Shown: in pieces, positions 17-42,060 of the stretch
Position numbering within the stretch: position 1 is the stretch's first letter
Layout of the letters: every line of letters begins with the position of its first letter
NCBI GenBank assembly: GCA_019429275.1
Contig: JAHYJC010000025.1
Coordinates: 1-64,000, forward strand
Source: Lentimicrobium sp.
GTDB taxonomy: Bacteria; Bacteroidota; Bacteroidia; Bacteroidales; Lentimicrobiaceae
Direction: 5' to 3'
DNA length: 64,000 nt
The notes under the pieces: generated by a model
What the model was told of the DNA's origin: nothing
What the model saw: the letters and a program-made list of their open reading frames with translations, nothing else
The model's database searches: none
Position numbers and translations under genes: made by a program

Positions 17-1291
17 ATGCTTGAAGAAATATTAGACATTCGTAATGTTACAAGAGCCTTAAAGCAGGTTACTGCCAATAAGGGAGCCGGAGGCATAGAT
101 GGTATGCAGACCGATGAACTTCGCGACTACCTGAATGCCAACTGGCAAATGTTACGCAAATCGATATTAGATGGCAGTTACAAGCCGCAGCCGGTTCGCA
201 AAGTAGAAATACCCAAACCACAAGGCGGCACAAGAATGTTAGGGATTCCAACCGTTATAGACAGGTTTTTGCAACAGGCTATAGCTCAATGGTTAACCTC
301 ACGTTATGATGAAGGCTTCTCCCCACATAGCTACGGGTTTAGGGCAAATCGCAATGCACATCAAGCCGTTGTGCAAGCAAAGGAATACCTGAACCTGGGT
401 TACGAATGGGTCATCGAACTAGACCTTGAGAAATTTTTCGACAAGGTTCACCACGATCGGTTAATGAGTACCCTGGCCACGAAAATATCGGATAAGCGCA
501 CCTTAAAACTTATCCGGGCTTATCTGACCAGTGGCATCATGGAAGGAGGGGTCGTCAGTCCACGTAATGAAGGCACACCACAAGGCAGCCCGTTAAGCCC
601 GTTACTATCGAATATCGTACTTGACGAACTCGATAAGGAATTACTTACCAGAGGGCATCGGTTTGTACGTTATGCAGATGATTGCAGTATCTATGTAAAG
701 AGTGAGAAATCCGGGCATAGGGTCATGGAAAGCATCACAAAATATATAGAGGGCAAACTAAAGCTCACGGTAAACCGTGACAAGAGTAAGGTGAGCCGAC
801 CATCGGATAGCACACTTTTAGGTTTTTCATTCTATAAAAGTAGCCAAGGCTGGGAAATACGTATTGCTCCAAAATCTTTAGACAAAATAAAGAAAAAGAT
901 AAAAGAGAAAACCAAACGCAATGACCCAACTCCAGCTAAAGAAAAGATTAAAAAGCTTGAGATTTCAATTTCGGGGTGGGTTAACTACTTTTGCATTGCC
1001 AAAGGGAAAAGTAAAATGGAGGAACTTGATCAATTGGTCAGAACGAGGCTCCGTATGTGTTTTTGGAAACAATGGAAAAAGCCGAAAACCAAACGACTTA
1101 ACCTGATCAAATTGGGCATTTCCACGCAAAAAGCCTATGAATGGAGCAATAGCCGTAAAGCATACTGCAGAGTTGCGCACAGCCCAATTTTGCAAAGATC
1201 GCTTAACAACCAATACTTCACTCGTTTGAAATATGTTGGATTTACTAACTATTACTTTTGGAAAACAGAATACCAGTTAACACTTTTCTAA
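17..1291 (+). CDS. ltrA: Group II intron reverse transcriptase/maturase
   Basis: This 424-residue protein copies intron RNA into DNA and helps the intron splice. RT blocks appear in order: NKGAGGIDG (about 21-29), IPKPQGGTRMLGIPT (about 65-79), YGFRANRNAH, ELDLEKFFD, GTPQGSPLSPLLSN (about 186-199) and the catalytic YADD at 219-222. A maturase (X/GIIM) region follows at about 300-370 with SGWVNYF. The protein ends soon after it, so there is no HNH endonuclease domain; this fits the shorter endonuclease-free intron ORFs. The ATG at 17 gives an N terminus where the family normally starts, so the ORF looks intact. The stop is four bases before domain V, the normal arrangement. Confidence 0.95.
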   Translation: MLEEILDIRNVTRALKQVTANKGAGGIDGMQTDELRDYLNANWQMLRKSILDGSYKPQPVRKVEIPKPQGGTRMLGIPTVIDRFLQQAIAQWLTSRYDEGFSPHSYGFRANRNAHQAVVQAKEYLNLGYEWVIELDLEKFFDKVHHDRLMSTLATKISDKRTLKLIRAYLTSGIMEGGVVSPRNEGTPQGSPLSPLLSNIVLDELDKELLTRGHRFVRYADDCSIYVKSEKSGHRVMESITKYIEGKLKLTVNRDKSKVSRPSDSTLLGFSFYKSSQGWEIRIAPKSLDKIKKKIKEKTKRNDPTPAKEKIKKLEISISGWVNYFCIAKGKSKMEELDQLVRTRLRMCFWKQWKKPKTKRLNLIKLGISTQKAYEWSNSRKAYCRVAHSPILQRSLNNQYFTRLKYVGFTNYYFWKTEYQLTLF

Positions 1292-10556: not shown

Positions 10557-11726
10557 TTAACGCTTTCTCCTTATACTTGTCTCAATTGCATCCACAATCC
10601 TGTTAAAAACCTCATTAAAGTTTCCAAGGCCGTCAATTCTTGTAACTTCGTGATGTTGCTTGTATTTCTCAATAACCGGTATAGTTTTGGTTTCGTGTTC
10701 CTGAAGTCGTTTTACGATTTTGGCGGTACTACTGTCATATGGCATGCACCCTTCTGTTTTGCTTCGGGCATCAAGGCGACTGATAAGTTCCAGGGTAGGG
10801 ACTTCAATATCAATTATCTGCGAAATTGATGAGCCATGTTTTTTTAACAATCCATCCAGAATGTATGATTGTACCAGAGTTCGGGGATATCCCTTGAAGA
10901 TAAAACCTTTTACATCTTTACTTTCTGCCAGCTTTTTTTCAATGAGTTGCACTACAATTTCATCAGGCACCAACTGACCATTTTCATAATGTTCTTTGAT
11001 TTTTTTTCCTGTTTCAGTATTATTTTTAATCTCCTGATCGAGCATTGGTCCTGTGGCAACATATTCCAGCCCAAAATGCCGGGCAAGCGCTTTGCCCTGC
11101 GAACCCCGCCCTGATCCGGGATAACCGAATAAAACTATATTAAACAGGCTTTTGCTCAGCTCATGCCTTATGATTTCTGTAATCTGATCATGTACCTTTT
11201 CAATTCCCGATGTACCATCCACTTCCAAAAAGATGCCTTTTTCTTTATAAAACTGAAGAACAGGAAGTGTCTTTTCACTATATTCTTTCAGCCTGTTTCT
11301 AATAATCTGTTCATTGTCATCGCTGCGCCCTGAAGTCAGTCCGCGATTCATCAGCCGTTTGACTGATTCTTCTTCAGGGACATTCAAACTGATCAGGCAA
11401 TTCAGCGAAGTATGCATTTTGATCATCAATCCCTCCAGAATGTAGGCCTGAATGTAGGTTCTTGGAAATCCATCGAAGAGAAAGCCATTGGATCCAGAAT
11501 TTTCGGTAATTGTTTTCTCAATAATCTGCACAATAATCTCATCAGGCACCAGTCCACCTGAGGCAATGATGTCTTGTGCTTCCAATCCTAGCCTGGTTTT
11601 TCCGGCCATCTCTTTACGCAAAAGATCACCGGTGGAAATATAATAGAGATTGTACTTTTTTGTAAGAAATTCCGACTGGGTTCCTTTTCCTGCGCCCGGC
11701 GGACCAAATAGTGCGATGTTGAGCAT
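10557..11726 (-). CDS. adk: Tandem adenylate kinase, second domain degenerate
   Basis: Adenylate kinase interconverts ATP + AMP with 2 ADP. This protein has 389 residues instead of about 190-215 because two kinase domains are joined. Domain 1 (1-190) is complete: P-loop GPPGAGKGTQ with K14, AMP-site STGDLLR (31-37), DGFPRT (85-90) and LID-side arginines near 134, 143 and 145; the LID is short. Domain 2 (about 195-389) keeps the fold but has GYPGSGRGSQ with R207 for the P-loop lysine, ATGPMLD where P227 and D230 replace the AMP-contacting D and R, and KGYPRT for DGFPRT. Catalysis should rest on domain 1; domain 2 may be regulatory or structural. Confidence 0.93.
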   Translation of the reverse strand: MLNIALFGPPGAGKGTQSEFLTKKYNLYYISTGDLLRKEMAGKTRLGLEAQDIIASGGLVPDEIIVQIIEKTITENSGSNGFLFDGFPRTYIQAYILEGLMIKMHTSLNCLISLNVPEEESVKRLMNRGLTSGRSDDNEQIIRNRLKEYSEKTLPVLQFYKEKGIFLEVDGTSGIEKVHDQITEIIRHELSKSLFNIVLFGYPGSGRGSQGKALARHFGLEYVATGPMLDQEIKNNTETGKKIKEHYENGQLVPDEIVVQLIEKKLAESKDVKGFIFKGYPRTLVQSYILDGLLKKHGSSISQIIDIEVPTLELISRLDARSKTEGCMPYDSSTAKIVKRLQEHETKTIPVIEKYKQHHEVTRIDGLGNFNEVFNRIVDAIETSIRRKR

Positions 11727-38509: not shown

Positions 38510-39052
38510 TTATTTCTTCAATTTTTTCACAATTTTCCATGCGATGCTTTTGAAGCCTTAAGTTACTTCATCCATCTGAAATTCAATTATATCTGTTATT
38601 TCAGGAATTAATTCGGGAAATTTTATTGTAACCTTCATCAGAATTAACTTACAATACATTTTCACTGCAACAGTTTCAGTTTTTGATTGCAACCATTTGA
38701 AAGAAATTTCGGTTAAAAGCCCGAGGTTATAGATTGGCAATGAACTTGTGGATTACATTCTTAATGAATGCCTTTTAAGTCCATCGGATGAAAAAGCAGG
38801 CAGATTATCTGATAATTCTTCGATTCTACAATCGAGTTGTTCCGGATGTAATTCAGAGCAATAATCAATTACCCAGGCTGCTCTCCTGCTTACAGGATCA
38901 ATATTATTAAGCATTATTAACCAGAACTCATCAAAGAATTCTGGTTTACTATTAAGTATTTCAACCCAAAAATCAGTTTTGTTTCTTGATTGTTCTCTGA
39001 GAAGCAAATTTTCCAGGATGGAAGTATCCGGATTCATAATTTTTAAAGGCAA
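38510..39052 (-). pseudogene. HEAT-like repeat protein gene with two in-frame TAA stops
   Basis: A single minus-strand frame of 181 codons carries a helical, HEAT-repeat-like protein: FFDEFWLIMLNNIDPVSRRA and VIDYCSELHPEQL near the start, then SLPIYNLGLLTEISFKWLQS, VAVKMYCKLILMKVTIKFPE and a last GFKSIAWKIVKKLKK. It is broken by TAA at codon 100 (38753-38755) and codon 165 (38558-38560), with the frame and coding character kept on both sides. No frameshift is present. Both stops could arise from TTA (Leu) by one change each, which is inference. From memory it resembles a Bacteroidota hypothetical family of about 180 residues. Confidence 0.65.
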
Positions 39053-39122
39053 AAATTAAGTTAAAGATTAAATCAAGTTTCGGAGTGATTCAAAATTTAG
39101 TAAGGCAAATTGGATAAAAACA

Positions 39123-39159
39123 GAAAAGGGAACTACTCTTGTCGAGAAATTCCCTTTTC
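39123..39159 (-). terminator. Terminator of the putative structured RNA
   Basis: GAAAAGGGAA (39123-39132) and TTCCCTTTTC (39150-39159) form a perfect 10-bp stem with an inner CTC/GAG stem. On the minus strand it is followed by CTG and five T. No T-run follows on the + side, so it works for minus-strand transcription. Confidence 0.75.
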
Positions 39160-39431
39160 GCCTTTGCAATAGCCGTAGCTTTTGCAAGACCTCAGGTTAC
39201 TGTTGGGGTGCTTTGTAGTTAAATCCCCCGTAGGACATTTTCTTACTTACCACTTGCAGGGCTTTTTTACTTGCGTAACGCTTCCTGACGGGACTTCGGT
39301 ACTTGTACTCTGCTATCGATTACTTTCCTTGCGGTCTGCGCTCAATTTGCTGAGCCTTTCAGCTTTTGTGACGGTTTCCTTGCGGACCTTGCACTTAGCC
39401 TCCCGGAGTTTCTCACCTTATCGCTGGCCTG
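39123..39431 (-). ncRNA. Putative structured noncoding RNA of about 310 nt, unidentified
   Basis: This block is bounded on the minus strand by a full promoter (39438-39468) and a terminator (39123-39159), and is less AT-rich than its flanks. Within it are short GCAA-tetraloop hairpins: UCC-GCAA-GGA (39378-39387), CC-GCAA-GG (39327-39334) and UUAC-GCAA-GUAA (39267-39278), plus GCUGA-AAGGC-UCAGC (39349-39363) and a GGGG/CCCC pairing near 39205-39235. The + strand is open for about 114 codons, but that reading has no protein-like quality. I compared it from memory with RNase P RNA, tmRNA, 4.5S RNA and 6S RNA: none of their signature sequences is present. Confidence 0.6.
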
Positions 39432-39437
39432 ATGATA

Positions 39438-39468
39438 CAAAGATAAGCTTTAAAGATGCTTTTGTCAA
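39438..39468 (-). promoter_or_regulatory. Promoter of the putative structured RNA
   Basis: On the minus strand TTG (39468-39466) is followed after 20 bp by TATCTTTG (39445-39438), matching the Bacteroidota consensus closely. Transcription would begin near 39431, where the GC-richer block begins. Confidence 0.7.
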
Positions 39469-39837
39469 GTATTTTTTAATATTTAAATTCAACATCGTAT
39501 TCACATTAGTTATGAACAATTGTTAATAATTTTCTTCACTTTTTTAATTGTATATCACTGATGTCCGGTAAAATCTTAAATAAAACTCTGAATCCTTTGC
39601 TGGTATAGTAAAAGGTAATATTTCGCTCCTCTGGAACTTTCTTTTTGGTTTAACCATATTTTACTACAAATATTACGCAGCTCTTCTGATGAAAAATTGC
39701 TACAGAATAGCAAAATATTTGCAGTCAGCAGGTTATCGGAATTGAAAATGAGCTACAGAGTAGCGTGATATTATAATCTCCAAATGTTCGGAAATTAGCC
39801 GGACAACAGTGATTGTATATATATGATAATAAGATTA
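39446..39837. other. Intergenic stretch between the RNA gene and relA
   Basis: About 390 bp without a gene. It includes the RNA promoter at its left end and a cluster of three related short repeats (39663-39772). The rest is AT-rich with no recognisable feature; no clear terminator for relA is seen. Confidence 0.5.
39663..39772. repeat. Three copies of a short hairpin-bearing intergenic repeat
   Basis: Two + copies, GCTACAGAATAGCAAAATAT (from 39700) and GCTACAGAGTAGCGTGATAT (from 39752), share an inner GCTA/TAGC hairpin. A third, inverted copy lies at 39663-39684 (minus reading GAGCTGCGTAATATTTGTAG). Consensus is about GCTACAGARTAGCGNAATAT. They are spaced about 50 bp apart. Such short repeats may belong to a dispersed genomic family; no other good copy was found in this window. 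Confidence 0.5.
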
Positions 39838-42060
39838 TTAATAAATTGAAGCCATCCTGCTTGCTTTGATTATTCCTTTAATTGATAACAATTTTTTGAT
39901 CAAAAAATCAAGATGCTTTTTGTCTTTAATGCTCACCTTCACAATGCCATCAAATTTTCCGCCCTTACTATCCAGGGAAATACCTCTTACATCCATTCTT
40001 AACTCCTGCGAGATCATGTTGGTTATCGTGTTTAAAATTCCTAACTGATCAAATCCACTTATTCTGACAGTGGCAATAAAAAATGATCCTTCAACCTTGG
40101 TTGACCACTTTGCATCCATTGAACGATAAGGATATCTGCTTCGCATGCGCGCCGCGTTGGGACAGGTTATTCTGTGAATTTTTATTCCATCACTAACTGT
40201 GATAAATCCAAAAATTTCGTCTCCCATTACCGGATTACAACATCTGGCCAACTTATATCCTTCTATTTCAGAACTTTCGTTCACAACAATTATATTGTCG
40301 GAGGTTCTGCTGCCTGCAAGCTGATCTGATTTTGAGGTTTTTGGTTTATCAGGTTTTATTTCCCCTTCTTTTGGAACTGATAAAATTATCTCTTTTATCT
40401 GGGTAGCCTCAATACGGTTATCGGCAAGACGTTGAAACAGATCGAGAGGTCCCGATAATTTAAAATGTGCAACCAGCTTATTGATTGCCTCATCCTGAGT
40501 AACAGATTTTATTTGTGACAATTTTCTTTTAAATATTATTTTACCTTCTTCAGCCTGCTGAAATTCAGCTTCTTTCAGATATCTTTTTATTTTATTTTTT
40601 GCTCTTGATGTAATTACCCATCCCAACCAATCAATATTCGGATTTTGATTTTTTGAAGTTATTACCTCAACCACATCACCACTTTTCAGGGTATGTTTTA
40701 AGGGAACAATCTTTCCGTTGACCCTTGCACCTGAGCATTTTGACCCTATTTTCGTGTGAACTTCAAAGGCAAAGTCCAGCACCGAACTTCCCGTTTTAAG
40801 CTTTTTCAGGTCGCCTTCGGGTGTAAAAACATAAATCCTATTATCAGGCGATACCAACTCTTCCCTTTCCGATAATTGTACTTCTGTTTCAATCGGATTT
40901 TCAAGAATCTTTCTGATTTTATTCAGCCATTCAATATTTTCAGCATCACTTTTATGCCCTTTATACCTCCAATGTGCAGCATTTCCCATTTCGGCCTCTT
41001 CATCCATCCTTTTGCTTCTTATCTGCACTTCTATCCATTTCCCCAATGGCCCAAGTACTGTAATGTGAAGAGATTCATATCCATTTAGCCTGGGTATTGT
41101 AATCCAGTCGCGCATACGGCTGGGTTCAGGCTTATATAAATTGGTTATAACAGAGTAAGCTTTCCAGCAATCAGCTTTTTCTAAGTTTTTATCAGAATCA
41201 AGAATGATTCTGATGGCAAACAAGTCATATACTTCTTCAAAAGGAATATTCTGCTTTGTTAGTTTTGAATAAACAGAAGCCACTGATTTAATTCTGTTTT
41301 TAATTATAAATTTCAGATTCTGTTTTGTCAATTCAGTGGTTATTGGTGCAATAAACTGATTTACATGGTCTCGGTTATTGTACTCAATTTCTCTTATTTT
41401 TTCGGCTAATTCATTATAAATTATAGGTTTTGAGAAGTTTAAGGACAATTCGTCCAACTCAGATTTTATCCTGTATAATCCAAGCTTATGTGCAAGTGGA
41501 GCATATAAATTTGCAGTTTCTGTGGCTATTGAAATCTGAGATTGCTTATCGAGCGTCTGTATGTTTCTCATATACTGAAGTCTGTCAGCAAGTTTTATTA
41601 ATAAAACCCTTACATCTGACGAGAGAGATAAAATTAGGCTAACAAAATTTTCTGAATTCTGGGGAAGTTTCTCGGTAGGGAGTTTGCTTATTTTATTAAG
41701 GTTTTCAATAATTTGCCTGCATTCTTTAAGTTCTTTGTGATTCAGAATTTCAATCAGTTGGGGTGAATCGGCATTGACTTTGGCAAGCAGTGCAGATATA
41801 ATGGAAGGCAATCCCATGCCAACTTTGGCAGAAATAATCCGGGCAACATCAACGGCATGTGAAAAATATGATTCATTGTTCATGTAAGTCTGTCGTCCAT
41901 ATTCAGACAGAGCAACCAGAAACGCTCTCTTTAGCAGTTCTTTTTCCGGACCCGATACAGAATCACCAACTGCCAGTATTAGTTCTTTGTATTTTGATAA
42001 AACGAACTGTTTATCTTTTGCTGTAAATCCCTGGTTCATTGGAGGTAAATAAATTGACAA
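39838..42060 (-). CDS. relA: RelA/SpoT-family (p)ppGpp synthetase with degenerate hydrolase site
   Basis: The 740-residue protein has the long RSH layout: HD region (about 50-200), synthetase (about 240-360), TGS (about 400-465), a helical part and a C-terminal ACT domain (about 665-740). The synthetase keeps VYDLFAIRIILDSD, NGYESLHITVLGP and EVQIRS, so it should make (p)ppGpp. In the HD domain H68 (SYFSHAVDVA) and the later KLADRLQYMR are kept, but the HD dyad itself is replaced: ALLHD-EDT became ALLAKVNADS with A93-K94. Hydrolysis is therefore unlikely, as in RelA proper. A second, SpoT-like enzyme is expected elsewhere in the genome. It lies downstream of floA beyond a terminator. Confidence 0.93.
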   Translation of the reverse strand: MSIYLPPMNQGFTAKDKQFVLSKYKELILAVGDSVSGPEKELLKRAFLVALSEYGRQTYMNNESYFSHAVDVARIISAKVGMGLPSIISALLAKVNADSPQLIEILNHKELKECRQIIENLNKISKLPTEKLPQNSENFVSLILSLSSDVRVLLIKLADRLQYMRNIQTLDKQSQISIATETANLYAPLAHKLGLYRIKSELDELSLNFSKPIIYNELAEKIREIEYNNRDHVNQFIAPITTELTKQNLKFIIKNRIKSVASVYSKLTKQNIPFEEVYDLFAIRIILDSDKNLEKADCWKAYSVITNLYKPEPSRMRDWITIPRLNGYESLHITVLGPLGKWIEVQIRSKRMDEEAEMGNAAHWRYKGHKSDAENIEWLNKIRKILENPIETEVQLSEREELVSPDNRIYVFTPEGDLKKLKTGSSVLDFAFEVHTKIGSKCSGARVNGKIVPLKHTLKSGDVVEVITSKNQNPNIDWLGWVITSRAKNKIKRYLKEAEFQQAEEGKIIFKRKLSQIKSVTQDEAINKLVAHFKLSGPLDLFQRLADNRIEATQIKEIILSVPKEGEIKPDKPKTSKSDQLAGSRTSDNIIVVNESSEIEGYKLARCCNPVMGDEIFGFITVSDGIKIHRITCPNAARMRSRYPYRSMDAKWSTKVEGSFFIATVRISGFDQLGILNTITNMISQELRMDVRGISLDSKGGKFDGIVKVSIKDKKHLDFLIKKLLSIKGIIKASRMASIY

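What the first reader, a model, noticed from the sequence alone, without database searches (positions are those of the whole stretch)
39123..39431. Unidentified structured RNA gene with GCAA-tetraloop hairpins
Seen: a TTG-N20-TATCTTTG promoter, a block less AT-rich than its flanks, and a terminator, all on the minus strand, framing about 310 nt without a plausible protein. Inside are at least three short GCAA-loop hairpins (39267-39278, 39327-39334, 39378-39387) and further stems. GNRA loops often make tertiary contacts, so a compact fold is likely. I found no signature of RNase P RNA, tmRNA, 4.5S or 6S RNA. Inference: a lineage-specific RNA, possibly regulatory; it lies 400 bp from relA but the link is only position.
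Basis: partly seen in the sequence, partly recalled or inferred. Interest (0 to 1): 0.68.

Follow-up and report, generated by a model that had tools for sequence, protein, structure and literature searches.

The report
Unrecorded structured RNA of Bacteroidia
Next to relA in this genome sits a gene for a folded, apparently non-coding RNA of about 320 bases; relatives with the same two ends but very different middles occur in many families of Bacteroidia, and it matches no catalogued RNA family, so what it does is an open question that can now be tested.

Summary
In detail: a minus-strand unit (promoter TTGACA..TATCTTTG, about 318 nt, terminator; about 39433-39116) with more GCAA hairpins than shuffles give. 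It is not a local curiosity. It is in 17 of 19 genomes of its family (13 of 13 good ones); a covariance model matches 68 of 295 genomes of the order, only 4 of these of its own genus, and further ones in other orders, including three named Cyclobacteriaceae. In 67 of 83 loci a script placed both ends. Shared plan: the ends pair (P1 perfect in 65 of 67; partner shuffles mean 36.9, maximum 45) around a conserved internal loop; a UNCG-type hairpin and a terminator follow. The body between varies about 3-fold in length and is rich in GNRA and UNCG hairpins. A palindrome TTATNAACAATTGTTNATAA, rare in the genome, sits at a fixed place upstream. Neighbours vary, so it is probably trans-acting. No Rfam family matches; RNase P RNA, tmRNA and SRP RNA lie elsewhere in this genome. 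Replication origin and 23S mimicry were tested and not supported. Function is inferred: an RNP scaffold or decoy RNA is my best guess. No transcript has been shown.

The parts
39116..39433 (-). structured noncoding RNA gene (predicted transcript about 318 nt)
   Evidence: promoter and terminator by sequence; homologues with covariation
39510..39529 (.). upstream palindrome TTATGAACAATTGTTAATAA (type TTATNAACAATTGTTNATAA), 78-97 nt upstream of the start of P1
   Evidence: only 0-mismatch copy in this genome; box TTATNNACA in 59 of 67 RNA loci, shuffle mean 3.9, maximum 10
39463..39468 (-). -35-type hexamer TTGACA
   Evidence: TTGACA invariant in the 15 genus sequences
39438..39445 (-). -7-type box TATCTTTG
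39428..39432 (-). P1 helix, 5' strand UCAGG
   Evidence: P1 perfect in 65 of 67 loci
39192..39196 (-). P1 helix, 3' strand CCUGA
39418..39427 (-). conserved internal loop, 5' strand (CCAGCGAUAA here; UGAGNGAUAAAA in most of the 65 loci compared)
   Evidence: column conservation in 65 loci, alignments
39197..39206 (-). conserved internal loop, 3' strand (CCAACAGUAA here; AAUAACAGUAA in most of the 65 loci compared)
39414..39417 (-). P2 helix, 5' strand GGUG
   Evidence: 100% of cells paired, with UA, CG and UG types at one pair, in 12 genus sequences; P2 of relatives tested
39207..39210 (-). P2 helix, 3' strand CACC
39377..39386 (-). GCAA hairpin UCC-GCAA-GGA
   Evidence: helix 4 (94.4% of cells paired)
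39327..39334 (-). GCAA hairpin CC-GCAA-GG
   Evidence: seen in the sequence and in the fold; CCGCAAGG at this place in 9 of 13 sequences. The RNAalifold consensus does not draw this hairpin
39267..39278 (-). GCAA hairpin UUAC-GCAA-GUAA
   Evidence: helix 6 (82.6% of cells paired)
39227..39234 (-). UACG hairpin CC-UACG-GG
   Evidence: helix 10 (97.2% of cells paired)
39160..39190 (-). P3 hairpin with UACG loop, just after P1
   Evidence: 7 of 7 pairs with changes on both sides in the genus; helices 1-3 over 43 sequences; fold
39116..39159 (-). intrinsic terminator hairpin and T-run
39838..42060 (-). relA/spoT homologue, directly upstream, same strand
   Evidence: ORF, named from its sequence; next to the RNA in 17 of 17 loci of the family; neighbours of this kind elsewhere match TGS and RelA_SpoT

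Best explanation
A gene for a free-standing, terminated, structured noncoding RNA of a family not in Rfam, spread over Bacteroidia. Supported by sequence comparison: its two ends pair (P1) around a conserved internal loop and a second helix (P2); a hairpin and a terminator follow; the body between is a string of short hairpins, many with GNRA or UNCG loops, of very different length in different lineages; a fixed-position palindromic box upstream of the promoter is kept with it. Inferred: it acts in trans (neighbours and their strands vary), its transcription is switched by a factor that binds the palindrome, the conserved end-core is where one partner protein or ligand binds, and the hairpin body is a stabilising or multiplying platform, so that the RNA works as an RNP scaffold or a protein decoy. 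My odds: real RNA gene 0.95; trans-acting 0.85; protein scaffold or decoy 0.4.
For: Covariation: in 12 distinct genus sequences 92.9% of cells pair, 28 pairs change on both sides against 15.5 in shuffles (0 of 500), and slid partners pair at most 47.1%. Over 43 sequences of the 3' module: 89.1% paired against 73.7 shuffled, 170 double-change cells against 51.5. P1 perfect in 65 of 67 loci, with UA, CG, UG, AU and GC at its first pair and GC or AU at its fourth; 2000 partner shuffles mean 36.9, maximum 45. P2 perfect in 42 of 58 loci outside the genus; shuffles mean 27.4, maximum 35; slides 0-10. Tetraloop hairpins in 67 bodies: 211 GNRA (shuffle mean 52.3, maximum 63) and 75 UNCG (10.2, maximum 16). 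Upstream box in 59 of 67 loci, 83 of 102 boxes within one 20-nt stretch. Distribution. No fixed same-strand gene downstream.
Against: No transcript was seen; everything is genomic. No partner protein, target or phenotype is known. A common fold of the body is unproven outside the genus; P2 is imperfect in 16 of 58, and a free search for P2 gave almost no signal. Conserved relA synteny in the family (17 of 17) could mean a local cis role. Loci are not independent (several per family), which can inflate shuffle tests; they were found and anchored with motifs of the family itself, which favours look-alike ends, though not the matching of their variants. 231 of 295 order genomes... that is 227 of 295, gave no R1 match, so presence is patchy or the model misses many. 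The named homologues are metagenome-assembled. G298 carries the RNA without the palindrome, and the palindrome without the RNA.
Confidence: 0.5

Rival explanations
1. A base-pairing regulatory sRNA: exposed purine-rich linkers between hairpins pair with mRNAs; the ends only protect it.
For: Bodies are 62% purine on average, with unpaired purine-rich linkers in single folds; fast body change is usual for such RNAs (recalled).
Against: The best conserved parts are the paired ends and the internal loop, not a shared exposed seed; 227-671 nt is large for a seed-pairing sRNA (recalled). No target search was run.
Confidence: 0.2
2. A large self-folding 'ornate' RNA, comparable to OLE, GOLLD or ROOL, that assembles by tertiary contacts or into multimers.
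For: Dense GNRA loops; repeated internal units in one family (4 copies in L154 at spacings 108, 112 and 102).
Against: No Rfam match; tetraloop receptors were not looked for; the smallest form measured (227 nt in L087) leaves little room.
Confidence: 0.2
3. A 6S-like RNA that binds RNA polymerase.
For: Widespread, own promoter, terminated; no RF00013 match in 3 genomes of the genus.
Against: RF00013 also misses the Bacteroides control, so that absence is uninformative; the consensus is branched with a small internal loop, not one long hairpin with a large bubble; neither 6S nor 6S-Flavo matches the locus or its relatives.
Confidence: 0.06
4. The locus is a replication origin or DnaA site (inverted DnaA-like boxes) and the RNA is a by-product.
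For: Boxes resemble TTATNNACA; the perfect palindrome is rare. GC skew changes sign near the RNA in this window, in G103 and, within about 45 kb, in G001.
Against: Third-position skew flips about 0.65 Mb from the RNA in G298 and about 0.35-0.5 Mb from it in G627; whole skew is positive on both sides of the lone palindrome of G298 (19 of 20 stretches of that contig positive). In 20-40 kb around dnaA of 5 genomes no 300-nt stretch holds more than 2 boxes.
Confidence: 0.03
5. A cis element of relA (leader or 3' UTR).
For: 17 of 17 loci of the family lie downstream of relA on its strand; relA is next to it at 8 of 73 other loci.
Against: Own promoter and terminator; elsewhere it is next to dnaG and many other genes in either orientation.
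Confidence: 0.05

Closest known systems
CsrB/CsrC/RsmZ decoy RNAs (recalled, no call)
   Same: terminated RNA of a few hundred nt, many short hairpins, variable body, conserved palindromic site upstream of the promoter
   Different: enriched loops here are GNRA and UNCG, not GGA; the ends pair and hold a conserved internal loop; CsrA was not searched; no Rfam match
OLE, GOLLD and ROOL RNAs (features recalled; PMC12286853 seen only as a search listing)
   Same: large structured RNAs without a coding role
   Different: no Rfam match; length varies about 3-fold
6S RNA, including 6S-Flavo RF01685
   Same: free-standing RNA with its own promoter; 6S-Flavo is a Bacteroidetes family (Table 1 of PMC2864571, passage read)
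   Different: branched architecture; no match
Bacteroidales-1 RF01693, Bacteroides-1 RF01694, Flavo-1 RF01705
   Same: computationally found RNAs of the same phylum (Table 1 of PMC2864571, passages read)
   Different: no match at gathering threshold in the window and 40 loci, nor at E up to 0.05 in 9 loci

Membership tests
Any Rfam 15 family | match to a covariance model | tested here: not met
   0 gathering matches in the whole window and in 40 homologue loci; 0 at E up to 0.05 in 9 loci; at E up to 5 in window 39000-39560 four matches, none inside the RNA
RNase P RNA | the genome's RF00010 match lies here | tested here: not met
   only match at G000:C99:77747-78141, E 4.9e-77
tmRNA | the genome's RF00023 match lies here | tested here: not met
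   match over the cut-off at G000:C19:81405-81776; the 4 sub-threshold matches in G000 are on other contigs too
SRP RNA | the genome's RF00169 match lies here | tested here: not met
   match at G000:C27:145509-145607
6S RNA | match to RF00013 / RF01685 at the locus | tested here: not met
   no match at this locus or its homologues
6S RNA | a separate 6S gene exists elsewhere in the genome | tested here: inconclusive
   RF00013 finds none in 3 genomes but also misses the Bacteroides control; RF01685 was not run on whole genomes
Csr-type decoy RNA | repeated GGA loops bound by CsrA | not tested
   enriched loops are GNRA and UNCG; GGA loops not counted and CsrA not searched
Csr-type decoy RNA | conserved upstream activator site (a general likeness; the site's sequence differs) | tested here: met
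   box at a fixed distance in 59 of 67 loci; binding factor unknown, G298 lacks it
ornate RNA (OLE, GOLLD, ROOL) | sequence/structure match to those families | tested here: not met
ornate RNA (OLE, GOLLD, ROOL) | multimeric three-dimensional assembly | not testable with these tools
   needs structure work

The most novel reading that the evidence does not exclude
A class-wide global regulatory RNA of Bacteroidia: one RNP core formed by the paired ends, with a body that lineages lengthen or shorten by adding hairpin modules (spaced about 105 nt in one family), switched as a whole by a dedicated factor that reads one rare palindrome; a functional counterpart in this class of Csr or 6S RNA that has no described relative.
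Probability: 0.3. Interest if true: 0.88.

Novelty: categorically new. Interest (0 to 1): 0.74.

Why it matters
A free-standing RNA kept across families and orders of one of the main bacterial classes, but absent from Rfam, is a gap in annotation that can be closed with a model like the one described here. Its constant ends, elastic body and private upstream palindrome point to a defined partner and a defined regulator, both of which are findable. If it proves to be a global regulator it would be a handle on RNA-level control in a large part of Bacteroidota.

Tried and rejected
Replication origin: skew sampled in G001, G298, G103, G172 and G627, and along contig C10 of G298 around its lone palindrome. 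Third-position skew was computed for G001, G298 and G627 only. In these three the flip lies near dnaA, while the RNA is about 45 kb, 0.65 Mb and 0.35-0.5 Mb from it. Against my rejection: in G001, in G103 (whole skew) and in the window itself the RNA is close to a change of sign.

23S rRNA mimicry: the 5' conserved strand shares GATAAAAGG with 23S near the peptidyl-transferase centre (place recalled), but 2000 of 20000 shuffles share a stretch as long and 1911 of 20000 meet the joint test, so it is not significant.

Chance hit: L092, titled Planctomycetaceae, has the pattern in what reads as coding sequence, without a terminator. Several weak R2 matches (L187, L191, L194-L196) show no usable core, and L189 and L193 a core-like string without a 5' end.

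Free P2 search with sliding register: 11.81 against a partner-swapped mean of 10.83, maximum 11.81. The fixed-register test was made after looking at those pairs, so it is partly post hoc.

Phages and plasmids by BLAST of the own sequence, and viral contigs by an exact pattern: no match. The BLAST tests are weak, since the same BLAST query finds nothing outside the own genus either.

Rows dropped: 83 cores were tried; 69 gave a 5' end; 14 did not (L025, L026, L029 and L032 of the own genus, whose ends are plain; L156, L159, L162 and L166, whose ends appear with 2-3 mismatches; L161; and L182, L183, L184, L186 and L190, with another 5' sequence). L154 and L024 were then dropped because the script anchored them wrongly, leaving 67: 63 with both promoter boxes and 4 (L059, L063, L157, L165) with the -7 box only. 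Seven records that duplicate other loci were left out beforehand (told by equal contig lengths). The column counts also leave out L176 and L178 (65 loci).

Full report
What is there. On the minus strand of the window lies a complete transcription unit: TTGACA (39468-39463), 20 nt from TTG to TATCTTTG (39445-39438), then about 318 nt ending in an intrinsic terminator with a T-run at 39120-39116. It is richer in GC (0.41-0.50) than its surroundings (0.24-0.36). Single-sequence folding alone is only modestly better than shuffles (z -2.1).

It is conserved as RNA. BLAST of the unit finds it in 15 of 99 genomes searched, all within its genus. A covariance model of 13 of them (R1) finds it in 17 of 19 genomes of its family and in 13 of 13 of good quality; the two without it are 72% and 89% complete. 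The pair counts on the genus alignment beat both controls (92.9% of cells paired; 28 pairs with changes on both sides against 15.5 in shuffles, 0 of 500; slides at most 47.1%). Promoter boxes and terminator are conserved with it.

It is far wider than the genus. R1 matches 68 of 295 genomes drawn from the order at E up to 0.01, 4 of them of the own genus; 227 had no match, and the weakest matches were not inspected. Of the 26 loci that I followed outside the genus (L047-L072, 19 families), all gave a 5' end of the type YCARG-UGAGNGAUAAAA, some with a few changes, beside a -7 box, and 24 beside both promoter boxes. A degenerate pattern of the 3' part in named genomes gives 20 records: bins titled Bacteroidales, Bacteroidetes, Bacteroidota or Bacteroidia, Lentimicrobium and Lentimicrobiaceae, three Cyclobacteriaceae, and one chance hit. 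NCBI puts Cyclobacteriaceae in Cytophagia and Lentimicrobium in Bacteroidales; the genome tool's wider 'class' is, as I recall, GTDB's Bacteroidia. A second model of the 3' module (R2) matches 53 of 395 genomes of the class and 17 of 395 of the phylum. The three phylum matches outside the class have E of 0.0025-0.008 and I treat them as chance, as I do several weak class matches. One family (f159; L182, L183, L184, L186, L190) has a different 5' sequence but the same pairing of ends (AUCAAG/CUUGAU), hairpin and terminator; I count it as a probable relative only.

Anatomy. 5' end: P1 strand YCARG, then UGAGNGAUAAAA, then P2. 3' end: P2', AAUAACAGUAA, P1' CYUGR, hairpin P3 with a UACG-type loop, terminator. 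P1 is perfect in 65 of 67 loci and its variants match each other (partner shuffles mean 36.9, maximum 45 of 67). P2 in fixed register is perfect in 42 of 58 loci outside the genus (shuffles mean 27.4, maximum 35), a test made after looking; a free search had shown almost nothing. P3 and terminator: 17 of 20 pairs change on both sides over 43 sequences. Loci come several to a family, so shuffles overstate significance. The measured span from 5' end to just past the terminator runs from 227 to 671 nt, median 384, in 67 loci. The bodies are full of short hairpins with GNRA (211 against 52.3) and UNCG loops (75 against 10.2). In f134 the body contains a repeated unit, four copies in L154 at spacings 108, 112 and 102 nt with 63-79% identity, three in L166, so there the body seems to have grown by modules. 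Two RNA genes stand in tandem in G172.

Control region. Upstream of the promoter, boxes TTATNNACA occur in 59 of 67 loci against a shuffle mean of 3.9 (maximum 10), and 83 of 102 boxes start within one 20-nt stretch. In Bacteroidales they often form a palindrome TTATNAACAATTGTTNATAA. In 22 genomes chosen because they carry the RNA there are 15 perfect copies: 13 stand before a complete RNA gene, one before a promoter-like stretch cut off by a contig end (G302), and one (G298) away from any RNA gene I know of. Eight further genomes have the site at the RNA with 1-2 differences; G298 has none at its RNA. Allowing two differences gives 75 sites against 24 for the reversed control pattern. In this genome the only perfect copy is at 39510-39529. 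This fits a dedicated transcription-factor site. The resemblance to DnaA boxes led me to test for a replication origin, which the skew data of G298 and G627 do not support, though the sign of skew does change near the RNA in three other cases.

Neighbours (mostly within 1.5 kb). In 17 of 17 loci of the family the RNA follows relA on the same strand. Elsewhere relA is a neighbour at 8 of 73 loci, one a duplicate record. A dnaG-like protein recurs at 10 loci, three of them duplicates (4 of 84 scanned neighbours carry Toprim and DnaB-binding domains). A further BLAST-linked group of 7 loci includes PhoH-like proteins (2 of 84 scanned neighbours match PhoH). Strand and side vary. So the RNA is a gene of its own and most likely acts in trans.

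What it is not. No Rfam family matches it or the relatives scanned. RNase P RNA, tmRNA and SRP RNA have their own loci in this genome. 6S could not be excluded by finding a separate gene, because RF00013 misses the Bacteroides control, but its shape differs. 23S mimicry is at chance level. It was not found in phage, viral or plasmid collections, by weak tests.

Literature. Searches (open-access PubMed Central only) gave no description of it. I saw passages only ('find') of PMC8040213, PMC9723704, PMC7366714, PMC11109978 and PMC2864571; the same look in PMC8632094 found none of the terms.

How it probably works (inference). The constant ends, held together around a loop with several invariant residues, look like a binding core. 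The variable body of stable hairpins looks like a platform or protective coat that can be lengthened without loss. A private switch upstream suggests expression under one condition. I therefore favour a protein-binding scaffold or decoy RNA, at about 0.4, over base pairing or an ornate self-assembling RNA. The comparison with CsrB and the consensus of Bacteroidota promoters are recalled, not taken from a call. 'Categorically new' refers to the RNA family: it belongs to none that I could test; as a sort of thing it is one more large bacterial RNA of unknown role.

Noticed in passing
window 10557-11726 (-): A 389-aa ORF that reads (by eye) as two adenylate-kinase-like halves in a row, the second with an altered nucleotide-binding loop (GYPGSGRGSQ).
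   Followed up: no
window 17-1291 (+): An ORF that reads (by eye) as a group II intron type reverse transcriptase/maturase at the very start of the window.
   Followed up: no
G627:C1 about 2.7 Mb; G001:C2 about 0.41 Mb; G298:C9 about 0.78 Mb: dnaA lies close to the plus-to-minus flip of third-position GC skew; in G627 the strands of the two 23S genes (698560 +, 3751066 -) would make that flip look like the terminus, not the origin.
   Followed up: partly
L249-L254, L259, L260: A second palindrome type, TTATGAACAWWTGTTCATAA with up to two differences, recurs in the own genus beside other genes (by eye a TonB-dependent receptor and a cytochrome-oxidase-like gene among them), perhaps a CRP/FNR-type site.
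   Followed up: partly
L062 (G172:C1:208860 and 209348): Two complete copies of the RNA gene, each with promoter and near-perfect palindrome, in tandem about 490 nt apart.
   Followed up: no
L182, L183, L184, L186, L190: A form in family f159 with a different 5' sequence (ATCAAGAACGACGTACTTTGACAG type) and, in L184, repeated ATCAGCGTTC-type units in the body.
   Followed up: partly
bodies of several RNAs, e.g. L048, L067, L085: AGTTCTTT is enriched in the bodies (11 of 67 loci against 0.3 expected); no explanation.
   Followed up: no
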